Assembly: GCA_023701435.1 (NCBI GenBank)
Contig: JAMPXB010000017.1
Span: 1-64,000 of the forward strand
Length of the DNA stretch: 64,000 nt
Direction of reading: 5' to 3'
Origin: Bacteriovoracaceae bacterium
GTDB taxonomy: Bacteria > Bdellovibrionota > Bacteriovoracia > Bacteriovoracales > Bacteriovoracaceae
Both the position numbers and the translations under genes were made by a program. The notes below the pieces were generated by a model that was given only the letters and a program-made list of their open reading frames with translations, had not been told where the DNA came from and ran no database searches. Shown here one piece after another: positions 17,945 through 58,617 of this stretch. The number at the start of each line of letters is the position of its first letter. The stretch's first letter is position 1.

Positions 17945-17978
17945 AAAAAAAGCCCACTGTTTTTAAGCAGTGAGCTTT
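17943..17978 (-). terminator. Terminator downstream of the first HExxH protein gene
   Basis: A 9-bp stem with one C-A mismatch (17951-17959 with 17968-17976) is followed on the minus strand by eight U residues (complement of 17943-17950). It ends the minus-strand unit whose last gene stops at 18002. On the plus strand it could also weakly end the Cys-cluster transcript. Confidence 0.7.
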
Positions 17979-18001: not shown

Positions 18002-19102
18002 CTACTTCTTCAGACCTTTTTCCATCGCCATCATTGAATCTTTCAAAGAGACGACATTGAATTCTCCTTCAGGAGTTGGATCTTTAGGAGTGGTTGAAGG
18101 CTTTTGGTTTTCCAGCGCGGCCAATCGTACGCTCAGCTCGGCATTCTTTCTTTTTAATTTCTGAAGCTCTGTTTCAAACATGTAGGCTCTATCAGGATAT
18201 TTAACTGCCAGCTCTTTGTAGGCGGCAATCAATTCAGAATATTTCTGAATTTGTGTTTTAAGAGCATGCTTCTGGTTCTCTAAACCCACATCCAGCACTC
18301 GGTTGAATGAGTCCGCGGCTCTGGCCGAAAGTACGGTCTTATCCTTAGTTGAACAAGACGTACAATTTTGCAACATATGAACTTCCGACAACCCTCCAAG
18401 AGAATAAGGACCATTGCTCGTAGATTCACAAGCGGCATGAGTCGCATAAGGATGCCCATCTGGACAGATGGCATGAGTAAAGCCCGTATGAGCACTGTTA
18501 CCATCACTATGACGGGCCTCATGGAAGAGCGTTCCCAGGCGGGAAATACTGTTTGCTGGTGAGAGCATATCTTTATTAATGGCAAATTTTTCCAGAAAGA
18601 GGCCGCGACCAACCTGCAAAATACCAGTGCGGGGAGATTTGCTGAAAACGTTCTGATCATCAAACTTGATTCCAAATAACATCTTCTCTTTCTTACCAAT
18701 CAGATAAATGGCGGTGCCGATATTGGACATGACGGTCGTAACTTCATCATTCCCTTCCACAGTACTGAATCCCCCAGGAAGGGGGGTATTGGGAAACTTG
18801 TACGATTCTTGAACCACAATATTGTCATTGCTAAGTTCGTAAGTTTCACCCACGACAAACTTAGCTCGGTTTACAAGCCAGTTGTGCATATTAGGACCAT
18901 CGGTAACAGTCATTCTGCTCATGGAAGCAAAGGCCGGAAGTGGCTTAGTTACTGAAGCTTTATAAAGATACTTAAGATCAACTTTGATTGCATTCACTTG
19001 ATCCTGGGGAACAGATGAATGGAATTGGATGCCTCCAAATTCTTGAGCAGCAAAAGCGGTAGAGATGGTTAAGGCCAGCGACAGGATAGCAATTTTTTTC
19101 AT
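18002..19102 (-). CDS. Secreted HExxH metallopeptidase-like protein (copy A)
   Basis: The product has 366 residues with signal peptide MKKIAILSLALTISTAFA. At residues 194-205 it has HEARHSDGNSAH, an HExxH zinc motif with Gly at the metzincin position and a third His one residue later than in metzincins (HExxHxxGxxxH). Downstream are CPDGH, ACES and NCTSC, giving four or more likely disulfide cysteines. Residues about 277-335 are a charged coiled coil. The tail P-x-D-P-x-P-E-G-x-F...S...LKK is shared with the paralogs at 19743 and 55448. Peptidase activity is inferred; no known family is recognised. AGG-type ribosome site and ATG are clear. It is separated by 104 bp from the partner gene. Confidence 0.75.
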   Translation of the reverse strand: MKKIAILSLALTISTAFAAQEFGGIQFHSSVPQDQVNAIKVDLKYLYKASVTKPLPAFASMSRMTVTDGPNMHNWLVNRAKFVVGETYELSNDNIVVQESYKFPNTPLPGGFSTVEGNDEVTTVMSNIGTAIYLIGKKEKMLFGIKFDDQNVFSKSPRTGILQVGRGLFLEKFAINKDMLSPANSISRLGTLFHEARHSDGNSAHTGFTHAICPDGHPYATHAACESTSNGPYSLGGLSEVHMLQNCTSCSTKDKTVLSARAADSFNRVLDVGLENQKHALKTQIQKYSELIAAYKELAVKYPDRAYMFETELQKLKRKNAELSVRLAALENQKPSTTPKDPTPEGEFNVVSLKDSMMAMEKGLKK

Positions 19103-19206: not shown

Positions 19207-19743
19207 TTAAGGAAGTCTCATGGCCAAAGCTTTAATCTCTTCGGGAACATCGGCATCAGCAATAGGTAAAAAGATTTTCCATTCTACGATTTGAGATAAG
19301 GTTTTTTTCCAGCAAACGGCCCTGATTGCCGGTAATAGTTCGCTATTTTCAGCACAGCTTTTGAAGAATTTCAGGGTTCCTTCTCTCCGGGCCGGATCCT
19401 TTTGAGCAGCTTCATGGATTTCACCAATCAATAGACCCCCATCTTTTACCGCTACCGGAGAATGATGAACCTCTTCCTCACTCAATTTTTTTATATCATC
19501 CACTGTAGGTAAGGCTTCCATTGCTTCTTCATACTCTTTTGCCGATTCACCTGACACGACCTGAGCTTCATTAGCAGCTTCAGGAGACTTCACTTCTACT
19601 TCCGTTACCGCTTTTTTGACTGGCTTCGTTTCTGGTGTCTCTTCCACGATATCGGGAGAGATAACCTGATTTTTTTGAAAAATCGCCACCCCGATGATCA
19701 GGATGGCGACGATTAGAAATAGGAGCTTAAGATTTTTATTCAT
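19207..19743 (-). CDS. Membrane-anchored partner protein 1 of the HExxH module
   Basis: The protein has 178 residues with one N-terminal membrane segment (residues 7-23), an acidic linker rich in Glu/Val/Ala (about 30-80), and a compact C-terminal domain. That domain is shared with the protein at 54912: LPTVDD, EEEVHHSP, AAQKDPARR and two cysteines spaced as C-x13-C in SCAENSELLPAIRAVC. The start codon overlaps the stop of the copy-B HExxH gene by one base (TAATG), so the two are probably translationally coupled. Anchor, periplasm-facing domain and coupling suggest a chaperone, inhibitor or docking factor for the HExxH proteins. That role is inference. Confidence 0.65.
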   Translation of the reverse strand: MNKNLKLLFLIVAILIIGVAIFQKNQVISPDIVEETPETKPVKKAVTEVEVKSPEAANEAQVVSGESAKEYEEAMEALPTVDDIKKLSEEEVHHSPVAVKDGGLLIGEIHEAAQKDPARREGTLKFFKSCAENSELLPAIRAVCWKKTLSQIVEWKIFLPIADADVPEEIKALAMRLP

Positions 19744-20855
19744 TATTTTTTCAGAGATTTTTCAATTAGTTTCACTGATTTTTTAATTGAGATCTCATCA
19801 TACTTGCCTTCCGGAGCTGGATCAAGCGGTAAGGCGACAGTCGGTTGTTTTTCCAAATCTGCAAGCATCAATTTTAGCTCTTCTATGTTCTGCTCAATTT
19901 TCTTTTTCTCAGCTTCGTAGGCTTTTTTCTTCTCAGGGGTGCTTAGATTAATCAAGGTATCATATACAGCGAGAACATCCTCGTAGGCCTTGATTTGTTT
20001 TTCTAACTCGGCTTTCTGAGCGCTTTGCTTGGGATCAACGATACGACTAAAGGCATCGGCTATACCTGCAGAAATAGCTGATTTTTCCTTCTCAGAACAG
20101 CTGCTGCAGTTGAGGAGAAGTTGTTTCTCAGCAACGGCACCCAATGAGTAAGAGCCATTGCTGGATTTTTCACAGGCTGCATGTCCTTCATAAGCATGAC
20201 CAGTCGGACATTCATCATGAACAAAACCAGTATGTTCACTGTTACCATCACTATGGCGAGCTTCATGAAATAAAGTTCCCAAACGTGAAACAGTATTAGC
20301 AGGAGCTAGGAGATCTCCTTTATTGATCCGGAATCTTTCCAGGAAGAGTCCCTTTCCTACTTGCAAAATACCTGCACGGGTCGATTTAGCATAAACTTTA
20401 TCTCCATCGAGCTTTAATCCCAATAACACATCTTGTTTCTTCCCCAGAAGATACAAGGCACTTCCAATATTGGACATGACTGTTACAACTCCTTCATCCT
20501 CATCTTCATTTACCGCCTTAAAAGCATCAGGCAGCGGAGTTTTAGGAAAGCGATGAAAAATCCAATAGGCAATATTCTCTTCAGTTAATTGAAAGCTTTC
20601 ACCAATGATGTGCTTCGAGCGATTGATCAACCAATTATGCATATGAGCACCGTCAACGGCCGGTAGACCGGTCATCGCCTGAAATTCAGCATCGATGGTC
20701 GAGACAGGAGTTTGATACAAATAGTTGATATCGGCTTTTAAGGCATTCACCTGGTCCTGTGGAACTGATGAATGGAAGTTGATACCGCCGTATTCTTCTC
20801 CTGCCATTGCAGAAGATAAAGCGAAGGCCAGACCTAGAGTGGTGAATAATTTCAT
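19743..20855 (-). CDS. Secreted HExxH metallopeptidase-like protein (copy B)
   Basis: The start is set at 20855, where CCAGGAGC precedes the ATG and the product begins with signal peptide MKLFTTLGLAFALSSAMA. A longer open frame to 21014 would run into the upstream acyl-reductase gene. The product has 370 residues. It carries HEARHSDGNSEH, CPTGH, ACEKSSNG and NCSSC as in copy A, and long blocks are nearly identical (FHSSVPQDQVNA, MSNIG, GILQVG-x-GLFLE, RLGTLFHEARH). The coiled coil near residues 280-345 and the P-E-G-K tail are kept. The gene order copy B, partner 1, copy A suggests tandem duplication around the partner. Confidence 0.75.
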   Translation of the reverse strand: MKLFTTLGLAFALSSAMAGEEYGGINFHSSVPQDQVNALKADINYLYQTPVSTIDAEFQAMTGLPAVDGAHMHNWLINRSKHIIGESFQLTEENIAYWIFHRFPKTPLPDAFKAVNEDEDEGVVTVMSNIGSALYLLGKKQDVLLGLKLDGDKVYAKSTRAGILQVGKGLFLERFRINKGDLLAPANTVSRLGTLFHEARHSDGNSEHTGFVHDECPTGHAYEGHAACEKSSNGSYSLGAVAEKQLLLNCSSCSEKEKSAISAGIADAFSRIVDPKQSAQKAELEKQIKAYEDVLAVYDTLINLSTPEKKKAYEAEKKKIEQNIEELKLMLADLEKQPTVALPLDPAPEGKYDEISIKKSVKLIEKSLKK

Positions 20856-20949: not shown

Positions 20950-23349
20950 CTAGCGGCGCTGATCGATAATAAGGCTAATCTTTCCAGTCCGAACATTACG
21001 GGGAACTTCCCCATGACCCTGTTCTTGGAGATGAATATCCTTCTTAAAGTCTTGATATTTAAGGGTATCCTTCACATCCCGAGAGCGTTCATAGAGTTCC
21101 AATAAAAAGGCTTCCTGATCAAAAGGGGTCAAAGGCTTCTCATAGGAAAAGGTGAGCTTCTCTCTTACCACATTGGCCTCCCGAACCTCGGAAATTTTGA
21201 TCTGGAAAGTAAGAATCTCCCGGGTGCTCATTACTGCTTCCACATCTTCCAATAGGAGGCGACAAGACCAGATTTGAATCACATTATCCACTCTTCCCAA
21301 CAGTTTAAAACGCCGATCAGAGCTGCCACACTGACAATCGGAAATCCACTCAATGCGGTCACCCGTCCGGTAGTTTCTAATGGGCATGGTTTCCCGTGCA
21401 AGGCTTGTAACGATTCCTTCTTCTTCCAGAATTTTAAGTTCTACCAGATCACTAAAAACATGATGTTCACCTGTTCCACAATGCTCGCACTGATAACCAA
21501 TTACTCCTGCATCTACCGAAGCATAACCGGCAGAAGCGAACACCTTTGTTTCCCAATTTTTTTCCAGATAATCTCGGCGGATTTCTGACAGAGCTTCCCC
21601 GGCGTAAAAAACCATCGGTATCTTAAGTTTCTCACCTACCGATTCTATATACTCAGCATTCATCACCAGCATGGATGGAATTCCCATGACAGCATCAGGC
21701 TTGAATTTTTTTAAATATAAAAGGATGTTCTCACTGGGGCAGATGCCTCCAATCGGCAGTTGAATCACGCCGATTTTTTCCAGCGCCTTATCGACACATA
21801 AAAAAGAAGACCATAGATTGCCTGCTACAAACAAATTGGCCACGGTCATTCCTGCACGCAAACCATGGCGCTTAAAATTTTCCGCCAACATATCACTCAT
21901 GAAATCAAATTCTTCATAGCTAAAATGCAGGTATTTGGGTTCCCCTGTGGTGCCGCCGGATGAAAAGATGTAACCTCTAGGGTGTGGATGACTTTCAAAG
22001 TGGGATTTAATGGTAACGGAGTTATTCACGGTGTGTATGTCTTCACCATAGTCCCTGATTCTTCTTTCATCACCGATGAAATTGACCAGCTCTCGTAATA
22101 CAAAACGGCCGTCGTGAGGCGCGCCTTCCATACCCCAGGTAATGGTTCCCAAAGGAGCAAAACGCTTAAGCCCAGTCAAGGCCAGAGTTTCCAGATAGAC
22201 TTCACGTTCAGAATCATCAATCAGGTAAGAACAAGACTGAAGATAGTATGAAAATGGTTCCAACAATGAGAACAATTCTTCCAGGTTTCTATAGCGTTTG
22301 ATGATCAGTGAGCGGTGAAGCGGAGAAGGTTTAAGTAATTTATTATCTTCTAAATGGAGAAGATAGTCTTCGCCGACAGTAATCTTCCCATCTTCCATGA
22401 GTTCAGAATAATAGCCCCGGTATTTTTCCTTAAGAATCTCGGTTGCTTCGTCTTCAGAGATCGCTCCCCGAGAAGGCGCTTGATTGAAAGCTTCCTCCAA
22501 TTCTCTTAATAACTCGGCTTCATCGATTCCTTCCTCAAGGTATAAATTCTGGGGAGAAGCGCAGGCCGACTGGTCCCAGGGAACAATATCAGCGACAATA
22601 CTTTCAGCGACTGATCGAAATTTTTTATTTTCCAGTCCTCGTTTGGTAATTAATTGCAGGGAGATTTTTGGTCCAAAATCCAAAAATTTTACGTGAAGAG
22701 GAAGATCCTTTTTATAAGACCCCATCATTTCTTCACCGCCCCAAGCGATAATGGTATTCACTTTGGATTTGATAAATCTCTCAACAGATTCATCCCCGCC
22801 TTTCCAGTGAAGAATGGCAAATTTATCGGAGAGAATATTCTTTTGGTCAAAATCCTTTAACTTCTGGGCAAAGAACATCGGAAAGAATTTATTTTGGCTG
22901 CTGACTTTAACAATTGAAAGATTCTTGGTCAGAAAGCCCATAACAAGGGAATCAATACAGCTCAAGAAAACATTTCCAGCAGTCACATGAAGGACAATTC
23001 CCTGAGGGATGGCGCGAGTCTTATTGCTGGCATTGGGAAGTTTGGTAAATTGATCCAACATTTCCGCCCTGGTAAATTCGACGCGAACTCTCTTCTCAAG
23101 GCTCTCTTTCTTTAACAGACCTGGCAACAACGCCAGGGTTTTAATGGTTTCTTCCTCAGAAAATCCCGACTCCTTAATAAGTTCAGGTAAGGCATCATTA
23201 AAAGAGATTTTTCCAAAAGCATCGAGGAGGTCAGTAATCTCCCCTAGTTTTGTTCCGGCGAATTTTCTTTTCTTTTCAGACAAGGCTTCCCACTCTGCCT
23301 TATCCTGCCAGTTAAAATCCTGCTGAATATCTTTACCAAACCAATACAT
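20950..23349 (-). CDS. LuxC-type acyl reductase fused to a PaaK-like acyl ligase
   Basis: The protein has 799 residues. Residues about 1-430 are a LuxC-like fatty acyl reductase: T-A-G-N-V-F near 124, a VPWDQSACASPQ segment with the probable acyl-accepting Cys263, and GTITWGMEGAPHDGR near 401. Residues about 440-799 are an adenylate-forming domain of the phenylacetate-CoA ligase type: SSGGTTGEPKY at 463-473, YASVDAG, NYRTGDR, and a CXXC...CXC zinc-like set (CEHC, CQC). The fusion would activate an acid and reduce it to an aldehyde using NAD(P)H. It starts 3 nt after luxE stops. No luxA, luxB or luxD lies nearby, so the aldehyde serves something other than light. Confidence 0.8.
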   Translation of the reverse strand: MYWFGKDIQQDFNWQDKAEWEALSEKKRKFAGTKLGEITDLLDAFGKISFNDALPELIKESGFSEEETIKTLALLPGLLKKESLEKRVRVEFTRAEMLDQFTKLPNASNKTRAIPQGIVLHVTAGNVFLSCIDSLVMGFLTKNLSIVKVSSQNKFFPMFFAQKLKDFDQKNILSDKFAILHWKGGDESVERFIKSKVNTIIAWGGEEMMGSYKKDLPLHVKFLDFGPKISLQLITKRGLENKKFRSVAESIVADIVPWDQSACASPQNLYLEEGIDEAELLRELEEAFNQAPSRGAISEDEATEILKEKYRGYYSELMEDGKITVGEDYLLHLEDNKLLKPSPLHRSLIIKRYRNLEELFSLLEPFSYYLQSCSYLIDDSEREVYLETLALTGLKRFAPLGTITWGMEGAPHDGRFVLRELVNFIGDERRIRDYGEDIHTVNNSVTIKSHFESHPHPRGYIFSSGGTTGEPKYLHFSYEEFDFMSDMLAENFKRHGLRAGMTVANLFVAGNLWSSFLCVDKALEKIGVIQLPIGGICPSENILLYLKKFKPDAVMGIPSMLVMNAEYIESVGEKLKIPMVFYAGEALSEIRRDYLEKNWETKVFASAGYASVDAGVIGYQCEHCGTGEHHVFSDLVELKILEEEGIVTSLARETMPIRNYRTGDRIEWISDCQCGSSDRRFKLLGRVDNVIQIWSCRLLLEDVEAVMSTREILTFQIKISEVREANVVREKLTFSYEKPLTPFDQEAFLLELYERSRDVKDTLKYQDFKKDIHLQEQGHGEVPRNVRTGKISLIIDQRR

Positions 23350-54342: not shown

Positions 54343-54915
54343 ATGGAAAATTATAAAGTTGGTTATTTCGTGGGTAGCTTGGCCAAGGCATCGATTAATC
54401 GGAAGCTTTCCAAAGCATTAACTAATCTGGCACCTAAGAATCTTGAACTGAGTGAAATCCCCTATGGAGAACTTCCCCTCTACAGCTATGACTATGATCA
54501 GGACTACCCTCAAGTGGCCAAAGATTTTAAAGCGGCCATTGCTAAGGTGGATGCCATACTTTTTGTGACTCCGGAATATAACCGCTCCATTCCGGGAGCC
54601 TTGAAGAACGCTATCGATTGGGCGAGTCGACCTTATGGACAAAACGCCTTTACCCGTAAACCTTCTGGAGTGATTGGGGCTTCGCCAGGCCTCATCGGAA
54701 CGGCGGTAGGACAACAGCACCTAAAAAGTATCCTCGGTTTCTGCAACTCTCCGTTAATGAATGCGATCGAGGCCTATATTCATTTTACGCCCGATCTGAT
54801 CTCGGACGACGGTAAGGTAAAAGTGAAAGAGACCCAAGATTTTTTAAGCAATTATATGAAGGAATTTGCGGATTTTATTGATCGCGTCCATATCGCCTAT
54901 AAGAAAACAAGCTAA
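54343..54915 (+). CDS. NAD(P)H-dependent FMN reductase
   Basis: The ATG at 54343, with AGAGGA upstream, gives 190 residues; the longer frame from 54235 runs into the broken oxidoreductase. GSLAKASINRKLSKAL is the FMN phosphate loop, and TPEYNRSIPGALKNAIDWASRP is the family signature of ChrR/YieF/AzoR-like flavin reductases. It reduces quinones, chromate or FMN using NAD(P)H. The stop shares CTAA with the converging partner-2 gene. Confidence 0.9.
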   Translation: MENYKVGYFVGSLAKASINRKLSKALTNLAPKNLELSEIPYGELPLYSYDYDQDYPQVAKDFKAAIAKVDAILFVTPEYNRSIPGALKNAIDWASRPYGQNAFTRKPSGVIGASPGLIGTAVGQQHLKSILGFCNSPLMNAIEAYIHFTPDLISDDGKVKVKETQDFLSNYMKEFADFIDRVHIAYKKTS

Positions 54916-55445
54916 GGTAGCTTAGACGCCAGATCAGTGATTTCTTGAGAGATAAGCTCATCCGATAAAGGAACAGGTATCTGCCACGTTGGGATGAGCT
55001 TTAAAATCTTACTTAGGCAGACGGCCCGAATGGCGGGAACCATTTCTTGATCTTCAGCACATCTCTTAAAAAAATGCATGGCCGGAACTCGTTTGGCCGG
55101 ATCCTTTTCTGCTTCATCCTGAATAAGTCCAATCACACCTCCAGCTTCCTTAATCACTTCGGGTGTGTAATGAACGTCTTCCGCTGTTAGCTGCTGTAAA
55201 TCACCGATGGTGGGAAGTGTTTTAAACTTCTGATCCAGGATATCTTGAAACTCTGATTGGGCCAAACCATGTTCCGTCTCTGCCTTAGTCACGACCTGGT
55301 GGGAAGTCTTTATCGACTCCACCGCTGGCCCGAGATGAGTTTCAGGAGATGTGGTTATTGTTCCTCTTGGTGAACGAAAGAACTTTCCCCCTGCCCCCAC
55401 CCCAATGATGACTAACACAATTAAAAGAGTCGTAAATTTCTTCAT
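54912..55445 (-). CDS. Membrane-anchored partner protein 2 of the HExxH module
   Basis: This 177-residue homolog of the protein at 19207 shares N-terminal hydrophobic anchor, linker and C-terminal domain. The matches are LPTIGD, EDVHYTP, AEKDPAKR, C-x13-C in RCAEDQEMVPAIRAVC and a final LASKLP. It starts 2 nt after the stop of the copy-C HExxH gene, so the pair is co-translated. Co-occurrence in both loci makes it a dedicated partner rather than a chance neighbour. Its activity is unknown; a periplasmic chaperone or inhibitor is one possibility. Confidence 0.65.
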   Translation of the reverse strand: MKKFTTLLIVLVIIGVGAGGKFFRSPRGTITTSPETHLGPAVESIKTSHQVVTKAETEHGLAQSEFQDILDQKFKTLPTIGDLQQLTAEDVHYTPEVIKEAGGVIGLIQDEAEKDPAKRVPAMHFFKRCAEDQEMVPAIRAVCLSKILKLIPTWQIPVPLSDELISQEITDLASKLP

Positions 55446-55447
55446 TA

Positions 55448-56548
55448 TTATTTTCTTAAAGATCGATCCATCAATTGCGAAGACTCCTCTACCGAGACTT
55501 CTTTAAAGGTCCCTTCTGGCTTAGGATCTAATGTTTGAGCTGTCATCGGTGTTCTTAATTCTTTTAGTTGCTCTTCACAATCTTTTACTTTAGCTCTCAG
55601 CCGTTCGAGCTCTTTGATAGACATCTCTGCACCAGGGGGGTTATTTGCAAGGTAACCGACATAAAATTCAATCACTCTTTGATAAGTCGCGATCTCTGCT
55701 AAGATTTGCTCTTCTGTTTTAAGATGAGAGCGAAGAACCACTCGGGAAAAAGCATCCGCGACGCTTGCCTCTAATTTCGTCTTATCCTCATTACTACAAG
55801 TAAGGCAATTCTCTAGAAGATTCTTTGTGGCCACTGCTTCCAAACTATAAGCGCCATTACTTGAGGCCTCACAAGCATCATAACCAGATAAAGCATGACC
55901 TGGAGGACAAGCATTGTGAATAAAACCTGTATGTTCAGAATGACCATCTCCATGACGAGCTTCATGGAAAATTGTCCCCAGTCTTTTTATCTTATTCGCT
56001 TCAGAACTTGGTTCTGTGTTTATAAGTAGCCTTTCCAGGAAAAGCCCCTCACCCACCTGCAGAATTCCCACTCTTGGAGATGGAGCAAAAACCGTTTTAC
56101 CATTTAGTTTAATGCCAGTTAATTTCTTTTCTTGTTTTCCCATCACATAAAGTGATGCTCCCACATTGGACATAATCATAATACGAGCATACTTATTGGT
56201 ACTATTAACGAGCGATGGCGGAAGTGGTGTCGAAGGAAAAATATGACCTGTTTTTTTAACGATATATCGACCACGCATTTGATAAGACTCGCCAATAATG
56301 TACTTCACTCGATTATAGAGCCAGTTGTACATATTAGGGCCATCAACTTTGGAAAGTCCGGTCATGGACTGAAACTCAGAATCAACACTCTTTACCGGAT
56401 TACTATAAAGATAGCTAAAATCTTCTTTGAGTGTTCGCACCTGAATTGCAGGTATTGAAGAATCAAGTTCGATGCCACCAAAATTCTCTCCGGCAAGGGC
56501 CGAAAGTGATGTTGTTAGTGCCAAGGTTAAAGCAAGCGTTCTTTTCAT
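55448..56548 (-). CDS. Secreted HExxH metallopeptidase-like protein (copy C)
   Basis: The start at 56548 (AGGGAAGAC upstream) gives signal peptide MKRTLALTLALTTSLSALA and 366 residues. It carries HEARHGDGHSEH, CPPGH, ACEASSNG and NCLTC, the coiled coil near 285-335 and the shared tail P-E-G-T-F...S-L-R-K. It is more divergent than copies A and B, so the duplication that produced it is older. It is followed by partner 2. All three copies keep the zinc-type His/Glu residues and the Cys set, which argues for function. Confidence 0.75.
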   Translation of the reverse strand: MKRTLALTLALTTSLSALAGENFGGIELDSSIPAIQVRTLKEDFSYLYSNPVKSVDSEFQSMTGLSKVDGPNMYNWLYNRVKYIIGESYQMRGRYIVKKTGHIFPSTPLPPSLVNSTNKYARIMIMSNVGASLYVMGKQEKKLTGIKLNGKTVFAPSPRVGILQVGEGLFLERLLINTEPSSEANKIKRLGTIFHEARHGDGHSEHTGFIHNACPPGHALSGYDACEASSNGAYSLEAVATKNLLENCLTCSNEDKTKLEASVADAFSRVVLRSHLKTEEQILAEIATYQRVIEFYVGYLANNPPGAEMSIKELERLRAKVKDCEEQLKELRTPMTAQTLDPKPEGTFKEVSVEESSQLMDRSLRK

Positions 56549-56646: not shown

Positions 56647-57213
56647 TTAAAAATCCCCCACCGCACCTTCCAGAGAAGTTTTGATTTGATTGGAAGCGAC
56701 AATCGTATCCATGACATCAAACAGAGCATCGATGTTAAGTGTGAGCGATCCGTCAGCACTCACAACATAAACGCCATCAAACTTAATGGTCATATTATCA
56801 TCTGTGCTGAAAGTTCCAGCATTATTCATAAAAGTCACACTTGGTTTTGTCAGGCCATCGCAGTTTTTCTCAAGGTCAAACTCCACCCGTTCGTATTGCC
56901 CATGAGGAACGCTTACTGTAATGAGATTTGTTCCTCCAGGAGTAATGTCTATTTCTCCCAGGGTAAGTTCAAAGTTTTGTCCTCCGGGTAATGTTGAGTC
57001 AGGCTTAAAGCGCATGCGCTTAAAGCAAAATTTCACATTACTTACCGCTGCGTATGCCGATGGAATGAAACTTTCAGAGAGATGCTTTATGAATGCGAAA
57101 GGTTGTTGGTCTTCCATCCGCAAGGCCACATTCGATTGCTTGACCGGATTGCCAGTAGTCGTGGGCCCGCACCCTACAAGAAAAGCCATCATAAGAATAA
57201 GTACAAGTTTCAT
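56647..57213 (-). CDS. Predicted lipoprotein, DUF4382-like (second of a pair)
   Basis: The protein has 188 residues and lipobox L-V-G-C (Cys15 lipidated). The mature part begins with a hydrophobic spacer and then VSNVKFCFKRMRFK, GGTNLITVSVPHGQYERVEFDLEKNCDG, and strands of a beta-sandwich. It is paralogous to the lipoprotein at 58042. The start overlaps the regulator stop (ATGA). The family resembles DUF4382-type surface lipoproteins; the ligand is unknown. Confidence 0.65.
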   Translation of the reverse strand: MKLVLILMMAFLVGCGPTTTGNPVKQSNVALRMEDQQPFAFIKHLSESFIPSAYAAVSNVKFCFKRMRFKPDSTLPGGQNFELTLGEIDITPGGTNLITVSVPHGQYERVEFDLEKNCDGLTKPSVTFMNNAGTFSTDDNMTIKFDGVYVVSADGSLTLNIDALFDVMDTIVASNQIKTSLEGAVGDF

Positions 57214-58028
57214 AGTTTCTCCTTCTTCTCAGTCAGAGGAAAACCTAGCAGACTGATATGGAAGATTTCAGTTTCATTTTTAATATTCGAATTTAATCCG
57301 GCTATCCTTTCGAGAGTCTCATCGAGGATGCGCTTTAGTTCCGGCAATTTGTCTTTTGGCATGGCCATGGTATGTCCGAGGATGTGCCGGTCTTCCGATG
57401 ACACTTTATAAATTGATTCTACGGCCTTCTCTAAAATTTGTTGATGGAAATCAGAAAGGGAAAGCTTGTATATATCCCCTTTGCAATCCAGCAGACGAAA
57501 TTCACCAAATTTGGCCAGAAGTCGGTGCTTATTCAAAAACTCAAGTGATTTCCTAATCTCTTTTAGTGAAACTGTGAAAAGGAGGCGCTCCTGAATCCAC
57601 TCCGCATTTTCCTGAAAATCGGCCAATTGACTCATTTCCCTGATCGCAACGTTCCACCACTTTTTAAGATACTTATAGGTCAGGACTTCCCGTGAAGAAT
57701 GTTCCTGAAAGGCTTTAAACTTCGCAAGACTTTCCAGTGCTTCTTTTTTATTTTCAGGACCATCGAATTCAAGAACGATAAGATGCTTAAGCCACGAGAC
57801 CTCTTGTTCATTCCATCCCAAGGCACTGGCCCAAAGTCCAATGTTCTCTTCTGTCAGTTGACGTTTTCCTTGTCCGATTAGAGTAAGAAGGGTTGGTGAA
57901 ACATTGAGCTTTTTGGCGAGACTTCGAAGTGAGACCTTATTTTGCTTATACCAGCTAAAAAGGTCGGCCAGATAAACCCGTGAGTCCTGGTACTTAAAGA
58001 TGTCTGGTTTATCTGACCGAGTAATCAT
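57210..58028 (-). CDS. TIGR02147-family regulator-like protein
   Basis: The protein has 272 residues. Residues about 10-65 are an XRE-like HTH (FSWYKQNKVSLRSLAKKLNVS, LTLIGQGKRQLTEEN). The remainder is the helical TIGR02147/DUF4423 domain (WNVAIREM, FLNKHRLL, HILGHTMAMPKD). Such proteins occur in several copies in Bdellovibrio and Fibrobacter and often lie near predicted lipoproteins. Here it is embedded between two paralogous lipoproteins in one transcript, which suggests it senses or controls them. Confidence 0.8.
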   Translation of the reverse strand: MITRSDKPDIFKYQDSRVYLADLFSWYKQNKVSLRSLAKKLNVSPTLLTLIGQGKRQLTEENIGLWASALGWNEQEVSWLKHLIVLEFDGPENKKEALESLAKFKAFQEHSSREVLTYKYLKKWWNVAIREMSQLADFQENAEWIQERLLFTVSLKEIRKSLEFLNKHRLLAKFGEFRLLDCKGDIYKLSLSDFHQQILEKAVESIYKVSSEDRHILGHTMAMPKDKLPELKRILDETLERIAGLNSNIKNETEIFHISLLGFPLTEKKEKL

Positions 58029-58041
58029 TTATTCTTCCGTT

Positions 58042-58617
58042 TTATAGTGAGCCACTTATGCTTTCAAGAGCGTCTTTCAAGTCACCGACTCCATTGTAGG
58101 CATTTGCTCCATTAAGGATATCCTGCACTCCAAGGACCAGCGATTCTGAACCATCCACGATGAAAGTTCCTTCAAACTTAATCGTAATTCGGGAGTTCGT
58201 GTTGTAAACACCAAAGTCATTTGTAAGACTTGCACTACTGCCGTTACAGTCAGATTCAAGATCAAATTCAATTCGATAATAGGTTCCTGCAGGAACGGAA
58301 ACATTTCCCAGGGAAGTTCCCGCATCTGAAAGTGTCACAAGTCCTAGCATGAGATCAATATTGTCATTAGAAGTTTCTGCTGTTGAAACATCATTAATAT
58401 CTTTTTTAAAGCGAAGACGTTTAAAGCAAACAGTAAGATCGGAGACCGCTGCGTGCGCTTTAGGAATAATAAGATCGGAAAGCGAGGCGGTAGTATAGCC
58501 TCCGAGCTGCATTGAAACCGGATAAGACTGTATGGATGAAACCGGTGAAGAATCATCATTTGACTGACAGGCGATTAAATTGACTAACATCAGAGAAGTA
58601 AGCAGCAAATGTTTCAT
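58042..58617 (-). CDS. Predicted lipoprotein, DUF4382-like (first of a pair)
   Basis: The product has 191 residues with a lipobox L-I-A-C after MKHLLLTSLMLVN (Cys17). The mature protein shares VSDLTVCFKRLRFKK, GNVSVPAGTYYRIEFDLESDCNG and the later ITIKFEGTFIVDGSESL with the protein at 56647. The two are clear paralogs with a common beta fold and a conserved Cys pair. It is the first gene of the lipoprotein-regulator-lipoprotein operon, 13 nt before the regulator. Confidence 0.65.
   Translation of the reverse strand: MKHLLLTSLMLVNLIACQSNDDSSPVSSIQSYPVSMQLGGYTTASLSDLIIPKAHAAVSDLTVCFKRLRFKKDINDVSTAETSNDNIDLMLGLVTLSDAGTSLGNVSVPAGTYYRIEFDLESDCNGSSASLTNDFGVYNTNSRITIKFEGTFIVDGSESLVLGVQDILNGANAYNGVGDLKDALESISGSL

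What the first reader, a model, noticed from the sequence alone, without database searches (positions are those of the whole stretch)
19207..19743. Dedicated membrane-anchored partner coupled to the HExxH gene
The small protein follows copy B with a TAATG overlap. Its homolog follows copy C with a 2-nt gap, 35 kb away. Both keep an anchor, a linker and a domain with C-x13-C. Repeated pairing in two loci indicates functional dependence: chaperone, inhibitor, anchor or immunity factor.
Basis: partly seen in the sequence, partly recalled or inferred. Interest (0 to 1): 0.72.

Follow-up and report, generated by a model that had tools for sequence, protein, structure and literature searches.

The report
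Anchored helper of secreted predator protease
In predatory Bdellovibrio-type bacteria a small protein anchored in the inner membrane is almost always encoded directly beside a secreted, protease-like enzyme, which suggests a dedicated helper or guardian that handles the enzyme on its way out of the cell.

Summary
The 178-aa gene at 19207-19743(-) overlaps HExxH copy B by one base (TAATG), and its 35%-identical homologue follows copy C with a 2-nt gap. In 368 held genomes of the phylum, 91 of 131 partner genes lie next to an HExxH gene, always on the same strand, nearly always downstream, most often overlapping by 4 or 1 nt. 103 genomes carry both families, 6 only the enzyme, 11 only the partner, 248 neither. 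All 82 aligned partners have exactly two cysteines beyond residue 30 (C-x13-C in 78), and nearly all have a single N-terminal anchor. Shorter relatives of the enzyme have a second, unrelated anchored partner family, adjacent in 41 of 43 loci. No database searched names these families. The anatomy matches membrane-anchored type II secretion chaperones (CpaB, Lif), and the genome carries a type II secretion cluster. I favour a CpaB/Lif-like chaperone or holdase; the main rival is a Bd3460-like self-protection inhibitor. It is a new variant of a known kind of pair.

The parts
19207..19743 (-). partner gene of copy B (178 aa): anchor, linker, domain with C130-x13-C144
19678..19731 (-). N-terminal hydrophobic anchor (residues ~5-22), no A-x-A cleavage site, no lipobox seen
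   Evidence: sequence; family hydropathy
19519..19677 (-). low-complexity linker (residues ~23-75), rich in E, K, V, A, P, S
   Evidence: sequence; family composition
19210..19518 (-). conserved domain, predicted periplasmic (residues 76-178), two conserved Cys (19354-19356 and 19312-19314)
19743..20855 (-). HExxH copy B, signal peptide plus conserved core (start MKLFTT, not the longer ORF start at 21014)
20253..20267 (-). HEARH (residues 197-201) of copy B, followed by invariant H213, C216, C228
19806..19823 (-). C-terminal tail motif DPAPEG of copy B at the end of a variable linker
18002..19102 (-). HExxH copy A, no partner of its own, 104 nt downstream of the copy-B partner on the same strand
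17949..17978 (-). terminator-like hairpin after copy A; no minus-strand one found between the partner and copy A
   Evidence: consensus match only
54912..55445 (-). partner gene of copy C (177 aa)
55448..56548 (-). HExxH copy C

Best explanation
The pair is an exported zinc-peptidase-like enzyme plus its dedicated, inner-membrane-anchored periplasmic chaperone or holdase. Proposed steps: (1) the enzyme gene and the partner gene are translated together; (2) the enzyme crosses the inner membrane by Sec and loses its signal peptide; (3) the partner stays in the inner membrane by its N-terminal anchor and reaches into the periplasm on a flexible linker; (4) its small one-disulphide domain binds the enzyme, helps it fold and/or holds it inactive; (5) the enzyme is released, probably to the type II secretion system, towards the outside or the prey, while the partner is retained. 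Step 1 is strongly indicated by the sequence. Steps 2-3 are predicted from sequence. Steps 4-5 are inferred by analogy with CpaB and Lif. That the enzyme is a peptidase is itself inferred from the invariant HExxH.
For: Adjacency and coupling: 91/131 partner genes beside the enzyme, all co-directional; the 72 pairs measured have spacing modes -4 (22), -1 (12) and +2 (8) nt. Co-occurrence in genomes is 103 both / 6 enzyme only / 11 partner only / 248 neither. Of the six enzyme-only genomes, two dissolve on inspection: G194 has a divergent partner at -4, and G356 has an anchor-bearing ORF at -4 cut by the contig end. Both genes are still present where they are unlinked, in genera g4 and g36. Pairs co-diverge: window B and C have largely the same nearest neighbours for enzyme and for partner. 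Anatomy: strong N-terminal hydrophobic segment in 96%, no second one, and exactly two Cys in 82/82 partners. The own genome has a GspC-D-E-F-G-H-J-K cluster, and GspG is over the cut-off in 66 of 69 pair-bearing genomes. Precedent: the Acinetobacter metallopeptidase CpaA needs the adjacent CpaB with one N-terminal TM helix; Lif is alike, with a -1 bp overlap in B. glumae (PMC4713064).
Against: No sequence match to any Pfam, NCBIfam, PHROG, PADLOC or PDB family, so none to Lif or CpaB. The GspG marker is also over the cut-off in 66 of 79 pair-lacking genomes, so it does not discriminate. Some partner genes persist without the enzyme and, in g16, with a cleavable-looking signal and no anchor, which a pure chaperone would not explain.
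Confidence: 0.47

Rival explanations
1. Self-protection (immunity) factor: the anchored partner inhibits the enzyme in the predator's own periplasm so that it acts only on prey, as Bd3460 does for Bd3459 and Bd0816.
For: Same gene order, enzyme first and protector second; in Bdellovibrio one protector serves a second enzyme encoded elsewhere (PMC4686830), which would fit copy A without its own partner and the two-enzyme/one-partner clusters. Solitary partner genes resemble orphan immunity genes. The named relatives are almost all Bdellovibrionota (two bins bear other names and look mislabelled).
Against: Not an ankyrin protein by profile search, and anchored rather than soluble; toxicity of the enzyme is unknown; some short relatives of the enzyme have no partner.
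Confidence: 0.27
2. Permanent tether or adaptor: the partner docks the enzyme, perhaps through its C-terminal D-x-x-P-E-G tail, to make a two-gene membrane-bound envelope protease that is never released.
For: Anchor plus flexible linker; a conserved C-terminal tail motif at the end of linkers of very different length (E349 in 74/82, P348 in 65/82) looks like a docking peptide.
Against: Two enzymes per partner in several clusters; the tail motif also persists where partner and enzyme are unlinked and, in its second form, in one genome without a partner (G195); g16 partners lack the anchor.
Confidence: 0.16
3. The partner is a substrate or sensor cleaved by the enzyme (a regulated-proteolysis pair).
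For: Anchored layout with an exposed, flexible linker (sequence).
Against: The linker is the least conserved part and no signalling domain is on the cytoplasmic side, where only a few residues precede the anchor.
Confidence: 0.07

Closest known systems
CpaA/CpaB of Acinetobacter (M72 metallopeptidase and its membrane-bound type II secretion chaperone; PMC4713064)
   Same: Exported HExxH metallopeptidase; adjacent gene for a protein with one N-terminal TM helix and a periplasmic domain; short spacing
   Different: No detectable sequence similarity; CpaB was predicted to hold an SRPBCC domain; M72 has HExxHxxGxx whereas here the invariant His is 12 residues after the second His of HExxH; function untested here
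Lipase-specific foldases (Lif/LipB/LipH)
   Same: N-terminal anchor, periplasmic domain, gene next to the enzyme, -1 bp overlap in B. glumae (PMC4713064); a variable linker after the anchor is from my own knowledge
   Different: Client is a lipase, no Pfam hit to Lif; the domain here is only ~110 aa with one predicted disulphide
Bd3459/Bd3460 of Bdellovibrio bacteriovorus (DD-endopeptidase and ankyrin self-protection protein; PMC4686830)
   Same: Same kind of predator; enzyme gene followed by the gene of a small exported binder; one binder can serve a second enzyme elsewhere
   Different: Ankyrin repeats, soluble in the periplasm, serine enzyme; here anchored, no ankyrin hit, HExxH enzyme

Membership tests
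Membrane-bound T2SS chaperones (functional class of Lif and CpaB, PMC4713064) | single N-terminal membrane anchor with the rest in the periplasm | tested here: met
   hydropathy of 82 partners: 96% have a strong N-terminal segment, none a second one, 10% an A-x-A after it; the solitary g16 forms look cleavable. Topology itself is predicted, not shown
Membrane-bound T2SS chaperones (functional class of Lif and CpaB, PMC4713064) | gene adjacent to and co-oriented with its exported enzyme | tested here: met
   91/131 adjacent, 0 on the opposite strand; spacing -4/-1/+2
Membrane-bound T2SS chaperones (functional class of Lif and CpaB, PMC4713064) | type II secretion system in the genome | tested here: met
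   Gsp cluster in own genome; GspG in 66/69 pair-bearing genomes; also common without the pair
Membrane-bound T2SS chaperones (functional class of Lif and CpaB, PMC4713064) | loss of the partner abolishes secretion of the enzyme | not testable with these tools
   needs a deletion mutant
Lif (Lipase_chap) or CpaB sequence families | sequence match to the family | tested here: not met
   no Pfam, NCBIfam or PDB match
Bd3460-type ankyrin self-protection proteins | ankyrin repeats | tested here: not met
   no ankyrin family among the Pfam matches listed for 82 members or for the window proteins
Bd3460-type ankyrin self-protection proteins | inhibits the neighbouring enzyme | not testable with these tools
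   needs purified proteins
Metzincin peptidases | HExxHxxGxxH zinc motif | tested here: not met
   the position 6 after the second His is not a conserved His (E in copy B, A in copy A); the invariant His is 12 after it (H213), followed by invariant C216 and C228
Any curated peptidase family | match over the curated cut-off | tested here: not met

The most novel reading that the evidence does not exclude
One uncharacterised predator enzyme superfamily has acquired two unrelated inner-membrane-anchored, one-disulphide partner families that play the same role, retaining and neutralising or folding the enzyme before it is released into prey. That would be a separately evolved class of tethered guardian in bacterial predators, with a conserved C-terminal tail on the long enzymes as the likely docking peptide.
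Probability: 0.35. Interest if true: 0.75.

Novelty: new variant of a known kind. Interest (0 to 1): 0.56.

Why it matters
It turns two hypothetical-protein families into a testable enzyme/partner module that occurs in about 28% of the phylum's held genomes and is named by no database searched here. If the partner is a chaperone, it predicts an unrecognised set of secreted predator enzymes and gives the means to make them in active form. If it is a guardian, it is a second, non-ankyrin solution to how predators avoid digesting themselves.

Tried and rejected
Chance pairing: rejected by the phylum survey. Known peptidase, ankyrin, Lif or defence family: no match. Mobile element or phage cargo: no match in plasmid or phage records. 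Common origin of the two partner families: not supported by profile-profile comparison (probability 5%), whereas the long and short enzymes are clearly related (E=2e-25). Correlation with type II secretion as a discriminator: uninformative, because the marker is common with and without the pair. A broad regular expression for the tail motif also matched the short enzymes and was dropped as too permissive. Literature search for the HEARH motif with metalloprotease: nothing.

Full report
What is there. On the minus strand, copy B (19743-20855, HEARH at 20253-20267) is followed by a 178-aa gene (19207-19743) with a 1-base TAATG overlap, and 104 nt further by copy A (18002-19102). About 35 kb away copy C (55448-56548) is followed after 2 nt by a 177-aa homologue (54912-55445). 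The two small proteins are 35% identical; copies B and C are 52% and 43% identical to A. The own genome has no further copies. The ORF of copy B as listed (to 21014) is too long; homologues start at the position of MKLF. The only strong minus-strand terminator-like hairpin is after copy A (17949-17978), so B, partner and A may form one transcript (inference).

Neither family is named. Pfam, NCBIfam, PADLOC, PHROGs and PDB sequences give no credible match for the window proteins or for the 82-member alignments searched. The enzyme has invariant H197, E198, H201, H213, C216, C228 and G234 and a near-invariant C250-x2-C253. This is not the metzincin HExxHxxGxxH pattern. A zinc peptidase is the natural reading, but activity is not shown. 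Organisms with relatives are Bacteriovorax, Halobacteriovorax, Bdellovibrio, Pseudobdellovibrio, Oligoflexus and Silvanigrella-type genomes.

The decisive test for the finding. I searched all 368 held genomes of the phylum with refined profiles and compared positions. Of 131 partner places, 91 lie within 1.5 kb of an HExxH place, none on the opposite strand. In 86 the partner is downstream; of the other five, three are enzyme-partner-enzyme clusters (the window and two loci of G088) and two are real reversals in Pseudobdellovibrio. 28 more lie elsewhere in a genome that has the enzyme, and 12 in genomes without it. By genome: both 103, enzyme only 6, partner only 11, neither 248. The Fisher p-value of about 4e-70 ignores common descent and must not be read literally, but the pattern recurs in many families and survives gene-order reversal and unlinking. 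Two of the six enzyme-only genomes fall away on inspection.

Coupling and co-divergence. Among 72 distinct pairs the spacing peaks at -4 (22), -1 (12) and +2 (8) nt, as expected for translational coupling. Enzyme and partner distances correlate over 79 pairs (Mantel r 0.62, 0 of 1000 permutations as high; shared phylogeny contributes). The window's B pair and C pair have largely the same nearest neighbours for both proteins, so the two pairs are old and have stayed matched. Several loci have two enzymes and one partner (window B-P-A, G104, G088 twice, G352, G330).

Anatomy of the partner. N-terminal hydrophobic segment, linker (median 47 residues, rich in S, E, A, P, K), and a ~110-aa domain with near-invariant P79, H93, C130 and invariant C144. 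All 82 have exactly two Cys beyond residue 30; in 78 they are C-x13-C, consistent with one disulphide in the periplasm. The sequence around the Cys pair, with (V/I)RA just before the second Cys, looks to me like a helical hairpin; this is a reading, not a computed fold.

The enzyme's tail. Although the C-terminal linker varies from about 34 to 128 residues, most enzymes end in D-x-x-P-E-(G) (P348 65/82, E349 74/82); a divergent subgroup has P-D-M-S/T-S. Shuffled tails match a simple version of the motif 17% of the time against 95 of 123 real ones. It may be the docking or secretion signal (inference).

A second, independent pairing. The short relatives of the enzyme (mostly 213-270 aa; related to the long ones at E=2e-25) come in two kinds: solitary genes, several of them after what looks like a threonyl-tRNA synthetase gene (by recall, not tested), and genes followed by a different anchored protein of ~245 aa with C-x5-C, again exactly two Cys. 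That second family shows no detectable relation to the first, has no credible Pfam match, occurs in 43 genomes, and lies beside a short enzyme in 41 of them, the other two being at contig ends. So the layout 'exported HExxH enzyme plus coupled anchored one-disulphide protein' exists with two unrelated partners, which points to a real need for such a partner.

Mechanism. The same layout is known from the membrane-bound T2SS chaperones: CpaB, required for secretion of the metallopeptidase CpaA, and Lif for lipases, both with one N-terminal TM helix and adjacent to the client (PMC4713064). The own genome has a T2SS cluster. In Bdellovibrio itself the closest functional precedent is Bd3460, an ankyrin protein encoded after the enzyme, which blocks it in the predator's periplasm and also serves a second enzyme from another locus (PMC4686830). 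I put the chaperone/holdase reading first because of the anchor and linker, and self-protection second. The two may coincide, since a holdase that blocks the active site does both. T2SS presence does not discriminate (66/69 with the pair, 66/79 without).

Points against. Partner genes exist alone in some Bacteriovoracaceae at a conserved place beside what looks like dnaE (by recall) and an unnamed gene. In g16 these have a cleavable-looking signal, and four of the five g16 genomes with them have no enzyme. In g4 the anchored version at this place is the only partner for an unlinked enzyme, except in G004, which also has an adjacent pair.

Verdict. Observation confirmed, interpretation supported, exact function open. 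A new variant of a known kind of enzyme/partner pair, with sequence-novel families on both sides.

Noticed in passing
L230:1813-3359, L143:1781-3215, L227-L269 (most), L271 and L272: Short HExxH relatives are paired with a second, unrelated membrane-anchored partner family (SKNDNDPR...PCLSLxxC), adjacent in 41 of 43 loci.
   Followed up: yes
window 19806-19823 and the C-termini of most long HExxH proteins: Conserved C-terminal tail motif D-x-x-P-E-G (or P-D-M-S/T-S in a subgroup) at the end of linkers of very variable length.
   Followed up: partly
L275, L276, L280, L077: Solitary partner genes at a conserved chromosomal place near a dnaE-like gene and an unnamed ~300-aa gene; in g16 with a cleavable-looking signal, no anchor and mostly no enzyme in the genome.
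   Followed up: partly
L142, L224-L226, L233, L237: Solitary short HExxH genes directly after what looks like a threonyl-tRNA synthetase gene, without any partner (thrS by recall).
   Followed up: no
window 56647-58617: Upstream of copy C, two similar small exported proteins (56647-57213 and 58042-58617) flank a gene that looks like a Bdellovibrio/Fibrobacter-type regulator (57210-58028; by recall).
   Followed up: no
L242:1122-3151: A divergent 457-aa HExxH protein with a divergent partner overlapping by 4 nt in a genome first scored as enzyme-only.
   Followed up: yes
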